Shown: one piece after another, positions 45,733-51,628 of the stretch
Layout of the letters: every line of letters begins with the position of its first letter
How positions within the stretch are numbered: the stretch's first letter is position 1
Origin: Microbispora bryophytorum
GTDB taxonomy: Bacteria; Actinomycetota; Actinomycetes; Streptosporangiales; Streptosporangiaceae
Direction of reading: 5' to 3'
Assembly: GCF_006874465.1 (NCBI RefSeq)
Contig: NZ_VIRL01000003.1
Span: 248,001-312,000 of the forward strand
DNA: 64,000 nucleotides
Notes under the pieces: generated by a model
Databases searched by the model: none
What the model saw: the letters and a program-made list of their open reading frames with translations, nothing else
Told to the model about the DNA's origin: nothing
Program-made: the position numbers and the translations under genes

Positions 45733-46266
45733 ATGAGGACGTCCGTGGCCTATCTCTTCGCCTTCTGCCGGCTGCTCACGGGCATCGTCTTCCTCATGTC
45801 CGCGGTGAGCAAGCTGCGCGGGCGGGCGGCGTACGAGGAGTTCACGGTGGCCACTCGCGCCCTCACGCGGCTGCCGGCCCGGCCCGTCGCGGCGCTCGTC
45901 GTCGCCGCCGAGGTCGCCGTCGCGCCGCTGCTGGCCTGGCCGCCCACCATGCTCGCCGGCTTCTGCGTCGCGCTCGGGCTGCTGGCGGCGTTCAGCGTGG
46001 CCGTCGTCGTCGCCCTGCGGCGCGGCAGGCGGGTCCCCTGCCGCTGCTTCGGCGCCTCCGCCGTTCCGGTGGGCCCGGGCCATCTCGCGCGCAACGCCGT
46101 GCTCATCGTGGCAGCGGCGGCCGGAGCGGTGCACGCCGGGACCGGAGCCGTCCCCGCGGACCTTGGGGCCGCCGGGCTTGCCGGGGCCGCCCTGGCGGCC
46201 GGAGCCGCGGCGGTCCTGCTGTCCGCGATCGGCGAGATCGCCGGTCTGTTCACCAGTTCACCCTGA
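45733..46266 (+). CDS. MauE/DoxX-like membrane protein (oxidative folding)
   Basis: This 177-residue protein has four hydrophobic helices (LFAFCRLLTGIVFLMSAVSKL; VAALVVAAEVAVAPLLAWP; CVALGLLAAFSVAVVVAL; LAGAALAAGAAAVLLSAI) and the redox motif VPCRCFGAS (Cys103, Cys105), the CxCFG signature of MauE. MauE works with MauD in making the disulfide-rich methylamine dehydrogenase small subunit. No mau structural gene is present here; the gene instead leads an operon ending in a six-cysteine peptide. ATG 45733 is favoured; GTG 45703 and 45745 are alternatives. Confidence 0.83.
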   Translation: MRTSVAYLFAFCRLLTGIVFLMSAVSKLRGRAAYEEFTVATRALTRLPARPVAALVVAAEVAVAPLLAWPPTMLAGFCVALGLLAAFSVAVVVALRRGRRVPCRCFGASAVPVGPGHLARNAVLIVAAAAGAVHAGTGAVPADLGAAGLAGAALAAGAAAVLLSAIGEIAGLFTSSP

Positions 46267-46281
46267 CGGAGGTAGTCCCTC

Positions 46282-46824
46282 ATGCCGTTCCTGACAGCGC
46301 TCGTCCTGGGCGTCGGCGTCCTGTGCCTGATCGACCTGGTGCTGACGGTCGGCGTGATCCGGCGGTTGCGGGCGCACGAGGAGATGCTGTCGGCGAGGCC
46401 GGCGGTGTCCCCGTCGATCGTGCTCCCCGCGGGGGCGAAGATCGGCGGCTTCTCCGCGGTGAGCACCGACGGCGTCCCCGTCTCCGGCGAGACGCTGACC
46501 GAGCCGGTCCTCGTCGGCGTCTTCTCGCCCGACTGCCCGGCCTGCCACGACCGCCTGCCGCAGTTCGCCGAGCGCGCGCGATCCTTCCCCGGAGGACGCG
46601 GCAACGTGCTCGCCGTGCTCGTCGGCGCGGAGGAGGAGGTGGCGGACGAGCGGCGGACGCTGGAGCCGGTCGCCCTGGTGCTGATCGAGGAGTACGGCAC
46701 CGGCCTGACGAAGGCGTTGCAGGTGAAAGGCTTCCCGTCCCTCGCGCTGGTCGACGAGCACGGGAAGGTCGTCGCCAGCGGGAGCACGATCGAGGACCTC
46801 GACAAGATTCCCGCACACGCGTGA
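46282..46824 (+). CDS. MauD-like thioredoxin-fold disulfide protein
   Basis: A 180-residue protein anchored by an N-terminal helix (LTALVLGVGVLCLIDLVLTVGVI) with an exported thioredoxin fold. The redox centre is FSPDCPACHDRLP (Cys85, Cys88) and the cis-Pro loop is KGFPSLALVDEHGKVVASG. This is the MauD/TlpA pattern. It starts 15 bp after the MauE-like gene and overlaps the ABC gene as GTGA. A role in forming or shuffling disulfides in the Cys-rich peptide is inference from context. Confidence 0.85.
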   Translation: MPFLTALVLGVGVLCLIDLVLTVGVIRRLRAHEEMLSARPAVSPSIVLPAGAKIGGFSAVSTDGVPVSGETLTEPVLVGVFSPDCPACHDRLPQFAERARSFPGGRGNVLAVLVGAEEEVADERRTLEPVALVLIEEYGTGLTKALQVKGFPSLALVDEHGKVVASGSTIEDLDKIPAHA

Positions 46825-48767
46825 AGGCGCGGGTGCGCGGCATGGCCGGAGTGCGGGCAGTGGTTGTCGCTCTCGGCATGGCCTGGCGGGCGAGCAGGAG
46901 GCTCACCATCGCCTTCGCCGTCCTCAGCATGCTCATGGCCGTCCTGCCGGTGACGATCGCCTGGTGCACCAAGCTGGTCCTCGATGAGATCGCCGGAGGC
47001 AGGCCCGGCGCCGGTGTGACGGCGGCGCTGGGCGGCGTGCTCGCCGGGTGCGGGGTCCTGACGGCGCTCGGGCCGCAGATCGTCCAGTACGTCAAAGACG
47101 AGAGCGGGCGCAGGATCGGGCTCGTCGCGCAGGACAGCCTCTTCAGGGCCACCGAGCGGTTCGTCGGCCTCGCCAGATTCGAGGACCCCGCGTTCCTCGA
47201 CCGGATCCGCATGGCCCAGCAGTACGGCGGAGCGACCCCGGGCATGGTGGTCTCCGCCGCCCTGGGCACGGCCAGGACGGCGATGACCGGTGCCGGGTTC
47301 CTCGTCTCCCTCGCGACGATAAGCCCGTGGATGGCCGCCCTCGTGGTCGGCGCCGCGGTGCCGTCTCTGGCCGCGGAGCTCTGGCTGTCGCGGCGGCGTG
47401 CCGCGATGCTGTGGGGCATCGGCCCGGTCGAGCGCCGCGAGTTCTTCTTCGGTGAGCTTCTCGTCAATGTCCAGGCGGCCAAGGAGCTGCGCCTGTTCGG
47501 CATCGGAGCGCATCTGCGCGGGCTCATGAACGCCCAGCGGCGCGCCGCGAACGCCCAGCGGAGCCGCACCGACCGGCGCGAGCTGGGGGTCCAGGCCGTG
47601 ACCGCGACGACGGCCGCGCTGGCGGCCGGGGCCGGCCTGCTGTGGGTTCTCGTGTCCGCGGCCAACGGCATGGGCGCGATCGGCGACGTGGCGCTGTTCG
47701 TGGCCGCCGTCGCCGGAGTCCAGGCCGCGGCGAGCGGTCTCGTGGTCGAACTCGTCACCGCGCACCAGCAGGTGCTGCTGTTCGGCCACTACCTCGCCGT
47801 CCTGGACGCCGAGCCGGACCTGCCGGTCGCGGCCCGGCCACGGCGGGCCGGTCCGCTGCGCCGGGGGATCGAGCTGAAGGACGTGTGGTTCCGCTACTCG
47901 CCCGGACATCCATGGGCACTGCGCGGCGTCAGCCTGACCATTCCGTACGGCAGCGCGGTGGCGCTCGCCGGGAGGAACGGCGCGGGCAAGAGCACGGTGG
48001 TCAAGCTCCTGTGCCGGATGTACGACCCGGAACGCGGCTCGGTCCTCTGGGACGGGATCGATCTCAGAGAGCTGGACCCGGCGGAGCTTCGCGCCCGGAT
48101 CGGGGCGGTGTTCCAGGACTACATGGAGTACGACATGACCGCGGCCGAGAACATCGGCCTGGGCGACCTCGCCGCCATGGACGACCGGGGGAGGATCGAG
48201 GCGGCGGCGCGGCGGGCGGGCGTGCACGGCGTCGTGAGCGGTCTGCCCCGGGGGTACGACACCATGCTGTCGCGTATCTTCGCCGGTCTCGGGGAGCCGG
48301 GCCTTGGGGAGGCCGGTGCCGGGGAGGCCGCTGACACGGAGGCCGGTCTCGCGGGGGCCGGTCTCGAAGAGGACGGCGGCGGCGTGGGCGTCCACCTGTC
48401 GGGCGGGCAGTGGCAGCGGCTCGCCCTCGCCCGCGCCTACCTGCGGGGCGAGCGGGACCTGCTGATCCTGGACGAGCCCAGCTCGGGCCTGGACGCCGAG
48501 GCGGAGCACGAGATCCACCAGGGCCTGCGGGCGCACCGCCACGGTCGCACGAGCCTGCTGATCAGCCATCGGCTCGGCGCCGTACGCGACGCGGACCACA
48601 TCGTGGTCCTCGACGGCGGGCAGGTCGCCGAGCAGGGCACGCACACCGGGCTGCTCGCGCACGACGGGATCTACGCTCACCTGTTCGCCCTGCAGGCGGA
48701 GGGATACCGGCAGCGGGGGGACCGGAACGCCGACGCCCCGCGCGACCGGTTCTCGGAGGCACGATGA
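46821..48767 (+). CDS. ABC exporter, fused permease and ATPase
   Basis: A 648-residue half transporter: six membrane segments in the first 330 residues, then an ATPase with Walker A (GRNGAGKSTVVKLL near 384), LSGGQWQRLALARAYL near 525 and Walker B LLILDEPSSGLD. No C39 peptidase domain is present, so it does not cut a leader itself. About 35 residues rich in Gly-Glu-Ala are inserted just before the signature motif and come from tandem DNA repeats. Position between the disulfide proteins and the signal peptidase/peptide genes suggests that it exports the peptide. GTG 46821 overlaps the upstream stop. Confidence 0.87.
   Translation: MKARVRGMAGVRAVVVALGMAWRASRRLTIAFAVLSMLMAVLPVTIAWCTKLVLDEIAGGRPGAGVTAALGGVLAGCGVLTALGPQIVQYVKDESGRRIGLVAQDSLFRATERFVGLARFEDPAFLDRIRMAQQYGGATPGMVVSAALGTARTAMTGAGFLVSLATISPWMAALVVGAAVPSLAAELWLSRRRAAMLWGIGPVERREFFFGELLVNVQAAKELRLFGIGAHLRGLMNAQRRAANAQRSRTDRRELGVQAVTATTAALAAGAGLLWVLVSAANGMGAIGDVALFVAAVAGVQAAASGLVVELVTAHQQVLLFGHYLAVLDAEPDLPVAARPRRAGPLRRGIELKDVWFRYSPGHPWALRGVSLTIPYGSAVALAGRNGAGKSTVVKLLCRMYDPERGSVLWDGIDLRELDPAELRARIGAVFQDYMEYDMTAAENIGLGDLAAMDDRGRIEAAARRAGVHGVVSGLPRGYDTMLSRIFAGLGEPGLGEAGAGEAADTEAGLAGAGLEEDGGGVGVHLSGGQWQRLALARAYLRGERDLLILDEPSSGLDAEAEHEIHQGLRAHRHGRTSLLISHRLGAVRDADHIVVLDGGQVAEQGTHTGLLAHDGIYAHLFALQAEGYRQRGDRNADAPRDRFSEAR
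48285..48375 (+). repeat. In-frame GC-rich repeat tract inside the ABC exporter gene
   Basis: Irregular 9-15-bp repeats of the type GGGGAGGCCGGT and GAGGCCGGTCTCG encode GLGEPGLGEAGAGEA-like sequence immediately before LSGGQ. Confidence 0.75.
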
Positions 48768-49222
48768 CAGCCGTCCTGCTGGTCCTGCTCGCGTCGGCGC
48801 TCGGGGCCGGGGGCGGCGTCGTGGCGGCCGGCCGGGCGTTGCGCGTCGTCGAGGTGCACGGGGAGAGCATGGAGCCCGGCCTGTGGTCCGGTGACCGGGT
48901 TCTCGTGCGCAGAGTGCGGCCCCGCAGGCCTGGCTTGTTCGTCCGGCGGGTCCGGCGCGGGGACATCGTGGTCATCTCCCGCGTGGGCCCGGGGGAGGGC
49001 GTCGCGCTCGACGGCGGCACGAACCTGGTGATCAAGCGGGCCGCGGCCGTCGCCGGGGACCCGATCCCTCCGGGATTCGAGGCGTTGGGGGAGACCCGCG
49101 TGCCGCCGGGGCGGCTGCTCGTCCTCGGGGACAACCCGTCGCGCAGCACCGACTCGCGGCAGTGGGGGCTCCTTCCGGAAAGCAGGATCACGGGTGTCGT
49201 GCTCCGGCGGTTGAACGCGTGA
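48764..49222 (+). CDS. S26 signal peptidase I-like protease
   Basis: A 152-residue protease with a single N-terminal membrane helix (LLVLLASALGAGGGVVAAG). The serine/lysine dyad is visible: Ser35 in VHGESMEPGL and Lys91 in TNLVIKRAAAVAGD, followed by VLGDNPSRSTDSRQWGLLPESRITGVV. It is shorter than housekeeping LepB. The ATG overlaps the ABC stop. As the gene directly before the peptide, it is the likely leader peptidase; the peptide has an Ala-Glu-Ala site that fits the A-x-A preference of the family. Confidence 0.9.
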   Translation: MTAVLLVLLASALGAGGGVVAAGRALRVVEVHGESMEPGLWSGDRVLVRRVRPRRPGLFVRRVRRGDIVVISRVGPGEGVALDGGTNLVIKRAAAVAGDPIPPGFEALGETRVPPGRLLVLGDNPSRSTDSRQWGLLPESRITGVVLRRLNA

Positions 49223-49233
49223 ACCAGGCCGAG

Positions 49234-49257
49234 CCGATACAGGAAGTCGTGTATCGG
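49234..49257 (+). promoter_or_regulatory. 8-bp inverted repeat before the peptide gene
   Basis: CCGATACA / TGTATCGG with an 8-nt spacer (49242-49249), 12 bp after the signal peptidase stop. It could be an operator or an RNA hairpin that sets the ratio of peptide to exporter. Confidence 0.5.
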
Positions 49258-49300
49258 AGCGGTACGTCCGTGATCGACGCCGCTCCTAATGTCGGTCATC

Positions 49301-49316
49301 GAAAAGGAGCCTTTTC
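49301..49316 (+). promoter_or_regulatory. Palindrome next to the peptide ribosome site
   Basis: GAAAAGGAGCCTTTTC, with 7-bp arms, ends 2 bp before the AAGGAGGAG ribosome site (49319-49327). It may affect translation of the peptide. Confidence 0.45.
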
Positions 49317-49331
49317 AGAAGGAGGAGCCGA

Positions 49332-49508
49332 ATGACACGGACGATGCAGCGACTGGCGGACCGGATGGTCGCCCGGCTGGTCCCGGCCACCCGCGCGGAG
49401 GCGGTCAACTGCTGGTATGAGTACTCGGGCACCTGCGTTCGCCGCTACTGCTGCACCGGCTCGGGCGTCCCCAGTGGCTACTGCACTCCATGGCAGTACA
49501 CCTGCTGA
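49332..49508 (+). CDS. Six-cysteine peptide precursor (putative exported disulfide peptide)
   Basis: A 58-residue precursor. Residues 1-24 (MTRTMQRLADRMVARLVPAT then RAEA) form a basic amphipathic leader with no Sec-like hydrophobic core, ending in Ala22-Glu-Ala24. Residues 25-58 form a Cys/Tyr/Trp-rich core with Cys27, 35, 40, 41, 51 and 58, the last being the C-terminal residue; six cysteines allow three disulfides. Trp28 and Trp54, five Tyr and four Gly complete it. The strong AAGGAGGAG site (49319-49327) implies high expression. It is the last gene of the MauE-MauD-ABC-signal peptidase series and is followed by a strong terminator. I know no named family; a bacteriocin or signalling peptide is inference. 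Confidence 0.82.
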   Translation: MTRTMQRLADRMVARLVPATRAEAVNCWYEYSGTCVRRYCCTGSGVPSGYCTPWQYTC

Positions 49509-49579: not shown

Positions 49580-51493
49580 CTACGCGAATTCCGCCGAATT
49601 CCCGCTCTCGTTCTTTCCGGCGGTTCTTGCGATCTCCATGGCGTACAGGCGGGTGAGGTCGTTCATCCGATAGTGGTCCGGGGCCATCGACTTCATCAGG
49701 CGGAGATCGGCCAGCCTGCCGAGCGCCGCCCACGCCGTGCGCCGGTCGCATCCGAGGAGCCCCGCCGCGGTCGCCGACCCGCAGTCGGCGGTTCCCCGCT
49801 CGCCGAGGCGGTGGAACAGGGCCAGTGCGCTGCCGTCCGCCGTTCCCCCGCACTGCCGCAGGGCCTGGTAGTCGAGGTCGAGGGCGCTCCGCACGGATAG
49901 GTCGCCGCAGGTCAGGAGGTCGAGCCGGTGCTCCTCGCCGGCCAGCATGTCGGCGAACGCCGCCAGCGTCCACTCCCGTCTGACCGCCAGTCGCTTGCCC
50001 GCGATCCGCAGCGCGAGTGGCAGGTTGTCGCAGAGCCGGGCCACTCTTCTCACCTGCTCGGGGTCGACCCGGTCCCGGCCGCAGACCCGGACCAGCAGTT
50101 CGTACGCCGTGTCGTCCGTCAGGGGAGCGAGCGACAGATGGTCGACGTCGTCGAGCGCCGCGAGCACCCGCCGGCTGGTGATGACGAACCGGCAGTCCGG
50201 GCAGGCGCAGAGCAGAGAACGCAGTTGCCCCTCGTCGGTCACGTTGTCGAGGAGGACGAGCACGCGCCTGCCGGTCGTCGCGGCCCTGAACTGGAGCACC
50301 GCGTCGTCGAGGTCCGGAGCGATCCGGTCGCCCGCCGGCCCCAGCAGGCTCAGCAGCCGCGCCAGCGTCTCGTACGCGCCGGGCCGGGGAAGGGACCGCA
50401 GATCGACGTGGAGCACGCCGCCGGGGAAGTCCGGCGCCGCCATCCGGACGGCATGCAGGGCCAGGGCCGACTTGCCCACACCCGCCGGACCGTGGACGGC
50501 GACGGGCCGCGGGGGAGAGGTGGCGATCGCGGCCATGATCTGATTCAGCTCCAGATCCCGGCCCAGGAGACGTCCGGAACCCGCGACCAATGGCGGCTCC
50601 GCTCTCGCCACAGGCACCGGCACCGGCTCAGGCACCGGGTGGGGCGGGCCCGGGGCGGGGAGCCGGGGAACGGCGCAGAGCGCCGGGTCCCGATTGAGGA
50701 TGCTCCGGTGCAGCTCGGCCAGCTCCGGCCCGGGCTCGACGCCCAGCTCCTCCGCCAGGAACGTGCGCGCCTGCCCGTAGGCGGACAGCGCGGCCGCGGA
50801 GTCGCCGGTGCGATACAGCGCGACCATGAGGCTGCTCCACAGCCGCTCCCTGGTGGGATGGGCGGCCACCGTCTCACGGAGCTCCGGCACCGCGTCGGCG
50901 TGCTCGCCCAGCATGAGGCGGGCCTCGGCCTGCACTTCCAGGGCCAGGCAGCGCTGCTCGGCGAGCGCGTCCAGGCGCGGGCCGAGCGCCGCCGACCTGG
51001 GCACGTCCTCGGCCGGTGCGCCTCGCCACCGGGCGAGGGCCGCCGACAGGTGCCGCAGCGCCGCCTCCGGCCGTCCGGCGGCCAGCGCCTTCCTGCCCTG
51101 CCGCAGGGCGTCGGCGAACTCGGTCACGTCAAGCTCGCCGGAGTGCGCGGTGAGGACGTAGCCGGGCGGCCGGGCCGCCAGCCGGTCGCCTTCGCCGAGC
51201 GTGCACCGCAGCCGGTTGACGTAGGTGCGGATGTTGGCGACGGCGGAGTGGGGCGGCTCCTCGTCCCACACGGCCGTGACCAGCCGGTCGATCGACACGA
51301 CCCGGTTGGGTTCGAGCAGCAGCGCGGTCAGCAGGGCGCGCTGCTTGGGCGAGCCGAGCGGGACCGGCCTGCCGTTCTTCCTGACTTCGATCGGGCCCAG
51401 CAACCCGAACCGGAGGCTCAATCCATCCTCCGGAAGCCCGAGGGTGCTGACGTACGCGTCCAACCGCATGATCGGTACACGAAGGATCTCCAT
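49580..51493 (-). CDS. AfsR/SARP-type transcriptional regulator with NB-ARC domain
   Basis: The 637-residue activator has an N-terminal OmpR-type winged helix (about 28-115; LRFGLLGPIEVRKNGRPVPL, SIDRLVTAVWDEEPPHSAVANIRTYVNRLR), a BTAD domain (about 122-268; LDVTEFADALRQGRKAL to LAELHRSILNRDP) and an NB-ARC ATPase with Walker A GPAGVGKS at 335-342 and Walker B VLVLLDNV. It lacks the C-terminal TPR of AfsR. Such regulators commonly control secondary-metabolite clusters, so it is a candidate activator of the peptide operon next to it (inference). ATG 51493; a TTG at 51514 is possible. Confidence 0.9.
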   Translation of the reverse strand: MEILRVPIMRLDAYVSTLGLPEDGLSLRFGLLGPIEVRKNGRPVPLGSPKQRALLTALLLEPNRVVSIDRLVTAVWDEEPPHSAVANIRTYVNRLRCTLGEGDRLAARPPGYVLTAHSGELDVTEFADALRQGRKALAAGRPEAALRHLSAALARWRGAPAEDVPRSAALGPRLDALAEQRCLALEVQAEARLMLGEHADAVPELRETVAAHPTRERLWSSLMVALYRTGDSAAALSAYGQARTFLAEELGVEPGPELAELHRSILNRDPALCAVPRLPAPGPPHPVPEPVPVPVARAEPPLVAGSGRLLGRDLELNQIMAAIATSPPRPVAVHGPAGVGKSALALHAVRMAAPDFPGGVLHVDLRSLPRPGAYETLARLLSLLGPAGDRIAPDLDDAVLQFRAATTGRRVLVLLDNVTDEGQLRSLLCACPDCRFVITSRRVLAALDDVDHLSLAPLTDDTAYELLVRVCGRDRVDPEQVRRVARLCDNLPLALRIAGKRLAVRREWTLAAFADMLAGEEHRLDLLTCGDLSVRSALDLDYQALRQCGGTADGSALALFHRLGERGTADCGSATAAGLLGCDRRTAWAALGRLADLRLMKSMAPDHYRMNDLTRLYAMEIARTAGKNESGNSAEFA

Positions 51494-51628
51494 AAGTGTC
51501 GGAATCCCTACCAAGATCCCTGTCCGCCACGAACCCTCACAAGGTCGGCGAGCATCCGGAACAGTTCCGGACTGCGCCTACCGGGGCGAGCGCGCGATTG
51601 GGGCAGACCAGGCGGGAACCGGCTACCC

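What the first reader, a model, noticed from the sequence alone, without database searches (positions are those of the whole stretch)
45733..49508. Operon that looks like a complete export and disulfide-folding route for one Cys-rich peptide
Five tightly spaced or overlapping genes encode MauE-like (CRCFG), MauD-like (CPAC), ABC exporter without peptidase domain, S26 signal peptidase (Ser35/Lys91) and a 58-residue six-cysteine peptide. MauD/MauE are known from methylamine dehydrogenase maturation, but no mau structural gene is here. The reading that they fold the peptide during export, and that the signal peptidase rather than a C39 protease removes the leader, is inference. I know no described peptide system with this gene set.
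Basis: partly seen in the sequence, partly recalled or inferred. Interest (0 to 1): 0.9.

Follow-up and report, generated by a model that had tools for sequence, protein, structure and literature searches.

The report
Gene cassette making disulfide-rich secreted peptides
A soil bacterium carries a compact set of genes that appears to make, export, cross-link and trim a small cysteine-rich peptide, and related bacteria use the same set with very different peptides, a toolkit predicted from genomes but, as far as could be found, not yet studied at the bench.

Summary
In detail: mauE, a mauD/TlpA-like gene, an ABC exporter without a peptidase domain, a small S26 signal peptidase and a 58-codon, six-cysteine frame lie in a row at 45733-49508. 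The window is Microbispora by inference. The peptide is a real gene family. Its 24-residue leader is conserved (D10, P18, A22-x-A24), amphipathic, lacks a Sec-type hydrophobic core and ends in a signal-peptidase AxA. Cores are hypervariable: 119 distinct cores, 17 cysteine frameworks, 118 with an even cysteine number. Of 69 loci picked by peptide or leader, 55 hold all four helper genes; of 41 picked by the exporter alone, 34 hold a leader peptide. 87 loci have all five gene types, in 23 orders. A SARP/AfsR regulator is near in 62 of 110. Best reading: a non-Sec, ABC-exported, disulfide-rich RiPP-like system; MauD/MauE oxidise the peptide and S26 removes the leader. Activity is unknown; antimicrobial is the best guess. 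It is not wholly unseen: decRiPPter (2020, PMC7794033) listed three candidate mauE families with Cys-rich precursors in Streptomyces. No product, fold or activity is shown here.

The parts
45733..46266 (+). mauE-like gene: 177-aa DoxX/MauE-type membrane protein with CRCFG at 103; presumed membrane partner that re-oxidises MauD
   Evidence: PF07291 2.3e-26; CxCFG conserved in about 98% of 66 aligned rows; model (pLDDT 72) best matches NACHO/TMEM35A, Z 11.7, a level that helical bundles can reach without kinship
46282..46824 (+). mauD/TlpA-like gene: membrane-anchored thioredoxin-fold protein, CPAC at 85-88, cis-Pro 152; presumed oxidant of the peptide
   Evidence: AhpC-TSA 5e-6, Redoxin just under its cut-off; first Cys 100%, second Cys 96%, Pro 99% of 73 cassette proteins (numbered 87, 90, 154, whose frame starts two codons earlier); one membrane helix
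46821..48767 (+). ABC exporter (membrane part plus ATPase in one chain), no C39 peptidase domain; presumed exporter of the precursor
   Evidence: ABC_tran 9.9e-28, no peptidase match; exporter relatives mark the cassette on plasmids and in the genus of G293
48764..49222 (+). S26 signal-peptidase-like gene, 152 aa, one N-terminal membrane helix, Ser35/Lys91; presumed leader peptidase
   Evidence: PF10502 2.3e-20, TIGR02227 above cut-off; Ser and Lys 96% of 73 rows; helix at 3-21
49332..49508 (+). precursor peptide gene, 58 aa
   Evidence: Conserved family
49332..49403 (+). leader, 24 aa, amphipathic, ends A-E-A
   Evidence: Alignment A1; helical moment of 67 leaders 0.558 against 0.299 shuffled, window leader 0.622; hydropathy maximum 0.75, no Sec-type core
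49404..49505 (+). core, 34 aa, six Cys in the order C-C-CC-C-C; predicted product 3885.52 Da with three disulfides, 3891.57 Da reduced
49580..51514 (-). AfsR/SARP-type regulator (BTAD plus NB-ARC) facing the peptide gene; probable regulator of the cassette; start codon uncertain
   Evidence: BTAD 4.4e-43; a related regulator in 31 of 41, 13 of 28, 3 of 7 and 15 of 34 loci of the four sets

Best explanation
This is a dedicated production line for one secreted disulfide-rich peptide, and one member of a large actinomycete family. The precursor carries a conserved 24-residue amphipathic leader that is not a Sec signal. The ABC exporter takes the precursor across the membrane (inferred). Outside, the membrane-anchored thioredoxin-like MauD makes the disulfides and MauE re-oxidises MauD (inferred from active-site conservation, even Cys numbers and related pairs). 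The S26 protease cuts after the leader's A-x-A and frees a 34-residue core with three disulfides (inferred from the motif at the leader/core border). A neighbouring AfsR/SARP regulator probably controls it. Shown here: the genes, their conserved co-occurrence, the leader and AxA pattern, even Cys numbers, conserved catalytic residues, hypervariable cores. Not shown: expression, order of steps, fold, target. Most likely role is an antimicrobial or other competition peptide (about 0.5 on its own).
For: Gene identity. Content conserved with order shuffled: 87 loci with all five gene types in 23 orders (a few loci are near-duplicates). Forward test: of 41 loci picked by the window peptide 33 hold all four helper genes, and of 28 picked by the leader profile 22 do. 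Reverse test: of 41 loci picked by the exporter alone, 34 hold a leader peptide of at least 14 bits and 37 hold all four helpers; two more (L081, L082) have a 9-10 bit match in the right place and L197 one that the profile missed. Even Cys in 118 of 119 distinct cores; in the first 92 peptides all were even, in 53 clusters at 60% and 25 at 50% identity, against 178 of 287 background frames. AxA in 117 and Pro at -7 in 118 of 119 leaders. Leaders amphipathic; hydropathy reaches 2.0 in 0 of 81 leaders against 3.1 for a signal-like N-terminus in the same window. Catalytic residues conserved. The window genome also has a MauE/DoxX-family gene beside a DsbA-family protein, and the lasso clusters of aborycin and humidimycin carry a DoxX protein beside a DsbA/thioredoxin protein assigned to disulfides (passages). 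Tandem variant copies (seven in L077), presence on plasmids (24 of 72,556 records hold an exporter relative) and SARP neighbours fit a competition peptide.
Against: No expression, mass or activity data. One of 119 cores has seven Cys (L182). Exporter-picked L168 has no recognisable peptide and L193 has a Cys-rich frame without a clear leader; L177 and L198 lie at contig ends. Some loci with peptides lack exporter and redox genes (L048, L056, L122, L138). Helper genes are not always complete: among 41 peptide-picked loci mauE was found in 35, mauD in 39, ABC in 38, S26 in 37. No common immunity gene was found near 50 loci (limited to long enough frames within 3 kb), which is unexpected for a peptide that harms close kin. 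The core model finds no confident fold, and the MauE model does not point to DsbB or VKOR. The leader profile was built from AxA leaders, so AxA and Pro counts are partly selected; the Cys parity is not.
Confidence: 0.8

Rival explanations
1. Same machine, but the peptide is not an antimicrobial: it is a signal, a developmental peptide or a protease inhibitor.
For: No common immunity gene found in 50 diverse loci. The window-type peptide is kept in 13 of 14 other same-genus genomes with pN below pS, so it is not diversifying fast within the genus.
Against: Very different cores across genera (17 Cys frameworks), tandem variant copies (L077, L072, L122), plasmid carriage and SARP neighbours fit competition better.
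Confidence: 0.35
2. The cysteines end up in something other than disulfides (thioethers or another cross-link) and MauD/MauE only manage redox state.
For: MauD/MauE are known from maturation of methylamine dehydrogenase (stated in PMC7794033, section 7), whose small subunit bears a quinone cross-link (recalled).
Against: No recurrent modifying-enzyme gene among neighbours of 50 loci. Even Cys numbers with both CPxC and CxC conserved fit disulfides.
Confidence: 0.1
3. The S26 protein does something else and a housekeeping signal peptidase, or none, trims the leader.
For: No S26 was found in a few loci (L042, L052; L173). Standard signal peptidases also cut after AxA (recalled).
Against: S26 is in 37 of 41, 24 of 28, 7 of 7 and 31 of 34 loci of the four sets with Ser and Lys conserved, and the leader has no hydrophobic core for a standard Sec route.
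Confidence: 0.15
4. The short frame is a chance reading frame and the helper genes serve other substrates.
For: None found; short high-GC frames are common in principle.
Against: Conserved leader, codon-level constraint, invariant Cys in 13 aligned cores, ribosome-binding-like motif in 92 of 92 members against 785 of 2880 background sites, and the two-way association.
Confidence: 0.01

Closest known systems
decRiPPter candidate families with mauE/mauD (Kloosterman et al. 2020, PMC7794033; section 7 read whole, other passages by term search, supplement not seen)
   Same: Streptomyces clusters with mauE homologues (one family also mauD), a transporter, peptidase and regulator by the strict filter used, and a predicted Cys-rich precursor; the authors also argue against a methylamine role and suggest a role on the precursor.
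   Different: Three of 42 computed candidates, precursors with at least 8 Cys. The section read names no shared leader, AxA, S26, Cys parity or occurrence outside Streptomyces (which was all that they searched). Whether those families are the same as this one could not be checked letter by letter.
Class I lasso peptide clusters (aborycin AboE/AboF, humidimycin HumE/HumF; passages of PMC6409603 and PMC7168211)
   Same: A DoxX-type membrane protein beside a DsbA/thioredoxin protein in the cluster of an exported, disulfide-bearing Streptomyces peptide; ABC exporters; a SARP gene near aborycin.
   Different: Those have lasso cyclase, RRE protein and B2 cysteine protease; no such gene was seen recurring here, and S26 stands instead.
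Methylamine dehydrogenase maturation (mau operon)
   Same: MauE and MauD homologues acting on a Cys-rich exported protein.
   Different: No mau structural gene found in the window genome (the controls were silent, so this is weak), and the substrate is a tiny leader peptide.
Double-glycine bacteriocins with C39-ABC exporters (recalled)
   Same: Short non-Sec leader, variable core, ABC exporter.
   Different: Exporter has no C39 match; the leader ends in AxA, not double glycine.
Bacterial CS-alpha-beta defensins (passages of PMC11561630)
   Same: Small secreted disulfide-rich bacterial peptides.
   Different: Those were selected for signal peptides by Phobius and a CxC-ending pattern; only 3 of 119 cores here match that pattern.

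Membership tests
RiPP (leader-core precursor made by ribosome, modified, leader removed) | Precursor with conserved leader and distinct core | tested here: met
   24-aa leader conserved, core hypervariable
RiPP (leader-core precursor made by ribosome, modified, leader removed) | Enzymatic modification of the core | not testable with these tools
   MauD/MauE present with conserved Cys but no product measured
decRiPPter mauE/mauD candidate families | mauE (and mauD) with Cys-rich precursor, transporter, peptidase and regulator | tested here: met
decRiPPter mauE/mauD candidate families | No methylamine dehydrogenase genes in the genome | tested here: inconclusive
   PF02975 and PF06433 not found, but neither rang in any control genome
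decRiPPter mauE/mauD candidate families | Precursor of at least 8 Cys in the published examples | tested here: not met
   Window peptide has 6 Cys; other members of this family do have 8 or 10
C39 double-glycine bacteriocin system | C39 peptidase domain on the exporter | tested here: not met
   No Peptidase_C39 match at E up to 1
C39 double-glycine bacteriocin system | Leader ending in GG, GA or GS | tested here: not met
   Window leader ends A-E-A; GG/GA/GS at -2,-1 in 4 of 119
Sec-dependent secreted peptide | Hydrophobic signal-peptide core | tested here: not met
   Hydropathy maximum 0.75 in the window leader, 0.22-1.75 in 81 leaders; 3.1 in a signal-like control
Type I signal peptidase substrate | Small residues at -3 and -1 with a helix breaker upstream (definition recalled) | tested here: met
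   AxA 117 of 119, Pro at -7 118 of 119; the profile was built on such leaders
S26 signal peptidase | S26 family membership and Ser/Lys dyad | tested here: met
   PF10502 2.3e-20; Ser35, Lys91; all 9 PDB sequence matches are signal peptidases
Methylamine dehydrogenase maturation | mau structural genes in the genome | tested here: inconclusive
   PF02975 and PF06433 not found, but neither rang in any control genome
Inhibitor cystine knot (knottin) | Cys order C-C-CC-C-C (recalled) | tested here: met
   Window core; 40 of 119 distinct cores
Inhibitor cystine knot (knottin) | Knotted pairing and fold | tested here: inconclusive
   Best model pLDDT 89.6 but the other four 63-68; no confident fold match
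CS-alpha-beta defensin | CX(2,18)CX(3)CX(2,12)CX(4,17)CXC pattern (from PMC11561630) | tested here: not met
   Window core does not match; 3 of 119 cores do

The most novel reading that the evidence does not exclude
A modular disulfide-peptide platform of actinomycetes: one conserved non-Sec leader, exporter, oxidase pair and signal peptidase accept almost any Cys-rich core, so that evolution swaps in unrelated disulfide scaffolds (17 Cys frameworks so far), in gene layout like animal venom peptide families (recalled). It would be a class of its own, defined by leader removal through a dedicated S26 peptidase acting on an ABC-exported precursor.
Probability: 0.5. Interest if true: 0.85.

Novelty: new variant of a known kind. 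Interest (0 to 1): 0.7.

Why it matters
If right, actinomycetes hold a large, little-explored store of disulfide-stabilised peptides with a self-contained folding and export line, recognisable by a short leader motif; the peptides are annotated as hypothetical proteins on the three plasmids looked at. The leader motif gives a direct genome-mining handle. The cassette could become a bacterial route for making disulfide-rich peptides of chosen sequence. It would also show a signal peptidase working on a substrate that does not come through Sec.

Tried and rejected
Chance frame: rejected by conservation, codon constraint, ribosome-binding motif and two-way association.

Fold of the core: AlphaFold2 gave one good-looking model (pLDDT 89.6) and four poor ones (63-68). 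Foldseek found nothing better than E 2.3; the second look gave a sea-anemone toxin structure at Z 3.0 at best; a profile search of PDB sequences gave four trefoil-type sequences at E 0.13-0.27. No fold is claimed. MauE model (pLDDT 72): best match NACHO/TMEM35A, Z 11.7 over 119 residues, a level that helical bundles can reach without kinship; Foldseek itself had nothing better than E 1.4; no PDB sequence match. Nothing for or against a DsbB-like mechanism.

Immunity gene: searched among neighbours of 50 diverse loci, frames of at least 60 aa within 3 kb that pass a codon GC filter. In five or more loci only the peptide itself (35), LuxR-type regulators (6) and ABC pieces (6) recurred. A first pass was spoiled by antisense frames. 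A smaller or very variable immunity gene would be missed.

Viruses: no relative in viral contigs. PADLOC: one generic ABC match. PHROGs: three matches, all for the S26 protein.

Wider spread: a leader search of a phylum draw found only the window genome, 1 of 396 at E 1e-4 (at most 21 candidates scored per genome). The exporter search of 296 genomes found 2 at 1e-80, with four candidates scored per genome. So the family is patchy and these are lower bounds. Phyla other than Actinomycetota were not searched, save as far as the plasmid and viral collections hold them.

Literature: nine searches, several of which had hundreds of matches and listed only the best 10 to 25. Of the listed papers only PMC7794033 was seen to link mauE to peptide precursors. 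The RiPP protease review PMC10885120 has no occurrence of signal peptidase or S26 (term search only). The library lacks most subscription papers, so later work may exist.
Full report
OBSERVATION. Profile searches give MauE (PF07291, 2.3e-26), a weak thioredoxin-fold match for the MauD-like protein, an ABC_tran domain and no peptidase domain for the exporter, and signal peptidase S26 (PF10502, 2.3e-20; TIGR02227 above its curated cut-off). The 58-residue peptide matches no Pfam or NCBIfam family at E up to 1 and no PHROGs family at E up to 0.1. On its other side, on the - strand, lies an AfsR/SARP-type regulator (BTAD 4.4e-43). Ten neighbouring frames were looked up (glycosidase with ricin-type lectin, methyltransferase, HD, DJ-1/AraC, FUSC, penicillin-binding-type, TetR, LuxR response regulator, CAAX protease family, one without match) and do not look like a larger biosynthetic cluster.

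WHOSE WINDOW. A scan of named genomes with the peptide alignment returned 11 loci: nine Microbispora (among them M. rosea, 97% identical peptide, M. corallina, M. siamensis, M. hainanensis), Sphaerimonospora mesophila and Thermobifida cellulosilytica. mauD, ABC and S26 were found in 11 of 11 and mauE in 9 of 11; it was not found in L158, and in L151 only the last 25 residues were seen. The window genome has three cassettes, on contigs C71 (window), C63 and C49, with three different cores.

THE PEPTIDE FAMILY. The 33 leaders of alignment A1 align with gaps only near the start; M1, P18, A22 and A24 are invariant and D10 is at least 90%. They are strongly amphipathic (mean helical moment 0.558 against 0.299 for shuffled sequence, 67 distinct leaders) and lack a Sec-type hydrophobic core (0 of 81 reach 2.0 on an 11-residue Kyte-Doolittle window; a signal-like N-terminus in the same window reaches 3.1). 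The cores, 28 to 75 residues, are hypervariable. The first survey gave 98 leader matches, of which 92 (72 loci) scored at least 16 bits; the six dropped were three six-Cys peptides (L081, L082, L147) and three frames without Cys (L040, L058, L143) that look like background. With 33 more from exporter-picked loci (at least 14 bits) there are 125 peptides and 119 distinct cores: 17 Cys frameworks, 118 with even Cys number, AxA in 117, Pro at -7 in 118. The odd one is L182 with seven Cys. In the first 92, all even, single linkage gives 53 clusters at 60% identity and 25 at 50% (at 40% everything falls into one cluster). Background short frames with at least 4 Cys from the same loci are even in 178 of 287. 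Even numbers across so many unlike cores are what full disulfide pairing predicts. The profile was trained on AxA leaders, so AxA and Pro counts are partly selected; parity is not. A ribosome-binding-like motif lies upstream of 92 of 92 (background 785 of 2880).

ASSOCIATION IN BOTH DIRECTIONS. Set 1: the window and 40 places that I picked by hand from the list (low E-value, open frame; several listed places, mostly weaker or with stops, were not fetched): 41 loci, all four helper genes in 33, none in 2, some in 6. Set 2: 28 places from the leader search not already held (14 weaker places, E 0.0024 to 0.01, mostly inside long frames, were not fetched): all four helpers in 22, S26 alone in 1, three of four in 1, none in 4, of which three (L141-L143) are chance matches inside long frames and have no peptide. 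Set 3: 7 of the 24 plasmid records with an exporter relative (Streptomyces and Embleya; the other 17 are further copies from S. clavuligerus or S. atratus): all four helpers in 7, a leader peptide of at least 14 bits in 5; an earlier profile made without these loci gave a match just upstream of mauE in 7 of 7, at E between 6e-7 and 0.36. Set 4: 34 loci picked by the exporter in genus g87: all four helpers in 30, a leader peptide in 29. Genus g87 is Streptomyces by inference: the G776 contig has the length and peptides of the Streptomyces sp. NBC_01237 plasmid. Sets 3 and 4 together: 34 of 41 with peptide, 37 of 41 with all helpers. Of the seven without, L081 and L082 have a 9-10 bit match in the right place, L197 has a peptide that the profile missed, L193 has a Cys-rich frame without a clear leader, L177 and L198 lie at contig ends, and L168 has nothing recognisable. 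Some loci are duplicates: L170 and L084 are the same plasmid, L190 and L080 share one peptide, and the named loci are mostly the same genomes as in set 1 (they are not counted in sets 1-4). L146 repeats L061 and was left out of all counts.

ORDER. 87 loci hold all five types, in 23 orders and orientations. The commonest is peptide-mauE-mauD-ABC-S26 (34); the window's order occurs in 13, all of the window's genus by their handles. Conserved content with shuffled order argues for a functional set and not for inherited synteny. An AfsR/SARP-type gene lies in 62 of 110 loci (31 of 41, 13 of 28, 3 of 7, 15 of 34). In a search for other recurrent neighbours near 50 diverse loci only LuxR regulators and ABC pieces (6 loci each) came up in five or more.

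MECHANISM. Active-site residues are conserved across cassettes: MauD first Cys 100%, second Cys 96%, cis-Pro 99% of 73 (Cys85, Cys88 and Pro152 of the window protein); MauE CxCFG about 98% of 66 rows; S26 Ser and Lys 96% of 73 rows. The AxA at the leader/core border with a Pro upstream is the cleavage region of a signal-peptidase substrate without its hydrophobic part (knowledge of signal peptides is recalled). So the best account is: export of the precursor by the ABC protein, oxidation by MauD kept oxidised by MauE, cleavage by S26. The order of oxidation and cleavage is open. The same genome has a MauE/DoxX-family gene beside a DsbA/Thioredoxin_4 protein, and the lasso clusters of aborycin and humidimycin carry a DoxX protein next to a DsbA/thioredoxin protein named as disulfide oxidoreductases (passages): both support MauE as partner of a thiol oxidase. 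Against this, the MauE model shows no kinship to DsbB or VKOR in the rows listed.

SELECTION. In 13 same-genus orthologues leader pN/pS is 0.018/0.144, core 0.161/0.283, core without Cys 0.201/0.314; the six Cys do not change. The core is under weaker constraint; positive selection is not shown.

STRUCTURE. The core model is beta-rich, but only one of five models is confident, and neither Foldseek nor the second look finds a convincing fold. The Cys order C-C-CC-C-C is that of knottins (recalled) and occurs in 40 of 119 cores, but pairing is unknown.

SPREAD. Leader search: 32 of 394 class genomes at E up to 0.01, of which 16 at 1e-4 or better (counted from the table); 1 of 396 in a phylum draw at 1e-4, the window genome itself; both scored at most 21 candidates per genome. 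Exporter search: 28 of 150 genomes of genus g87 at 1e-100 (eight candidates scored each). In one search, 164 of 198 genomes matched at E up to 1, most of it noise; 13 of 14 other same-genus genomes have a strong match.

WHAT IS KNOWN. decRiPPter (PMC7794033, section 7 read whole, passages, supplement not seen) lists, among 42 candidate families in Streptomyces, three with mauE, one of them also with mauD, each with a predicted precursor of at least 8 Cys, and already argues against a methylamine role. That is very probably the same kind of system, glimpsed but not defined. In what was listed by nine searches of the library I saw no description of the shared leader, the AxA/S26 link, the Cys parity or members outside Streptomyces; most listed papers were seen only as titles and abstract starts. 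Annotation on three plasmids calls the peptide and the mauD-like gene hypothetical proteins.

VERDICT. Real, conserved, coherent, untested. New variant of a known kind (leader-directed, exported, modified peptide), with a fair case for being a class of its own.

Noticed in passing
G000:C63:2001-22000 (L058) and G000:C49:718000-737000 (L119): Two further cassettes in the window's own genome with quite different six-Cys cores; in L119 the exporter lies on the other strand and about 2.9 kb separates mauE from S26.
   Followed up: partly
L206 7720-9171 (G000:C60): A MauE/DoxX-family gene beside a DsbA/Thioredoxin_4 protein with CPAC, apparently a general disulfide-forming pair of this genome.
   Followed up: partly
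L207 7019-7849 (G000:C49): A frame with a MauE-type N-terminal part (CGCFG; PF07291 1.1e-9) and an extra C-terminal part, near a sigma-factor gene and, by eye, an AAA ATPase; role unknown.
   Followed up: partly
L061 6606-14280: In M. triticiradicis about 4.5 kb of extra DNA separates S26 from an intact peptide gene, and only the end of mauE was seen; the peptide may have its own promoter.
   Followed up: no
L122 from 7386; L056 8558; L048 8172: Leader peptides without exporter or redox genes nearby; L122 holds four in tandem beside a SARP-type gene while the same genome has cassettes elsewhere (L123, L124).
   Followed up: partly
L182 9668-9835: The only core with an odd Cys number (seven); possible dimer, free thiol or sequencing error.
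   Followed up: no
window 48270-48359 (exporter residues about 484-513): The exporter's ATPase domain has a Gly/Ala/Glu-rich insert that splits profile matches into two stretches.
   Followed up: no
L128 7782, L171 9831, L173 6872: Ten-Cys cores that match a published bacterial defensin spacing pattern; may be coincidence.
   Followed up: no
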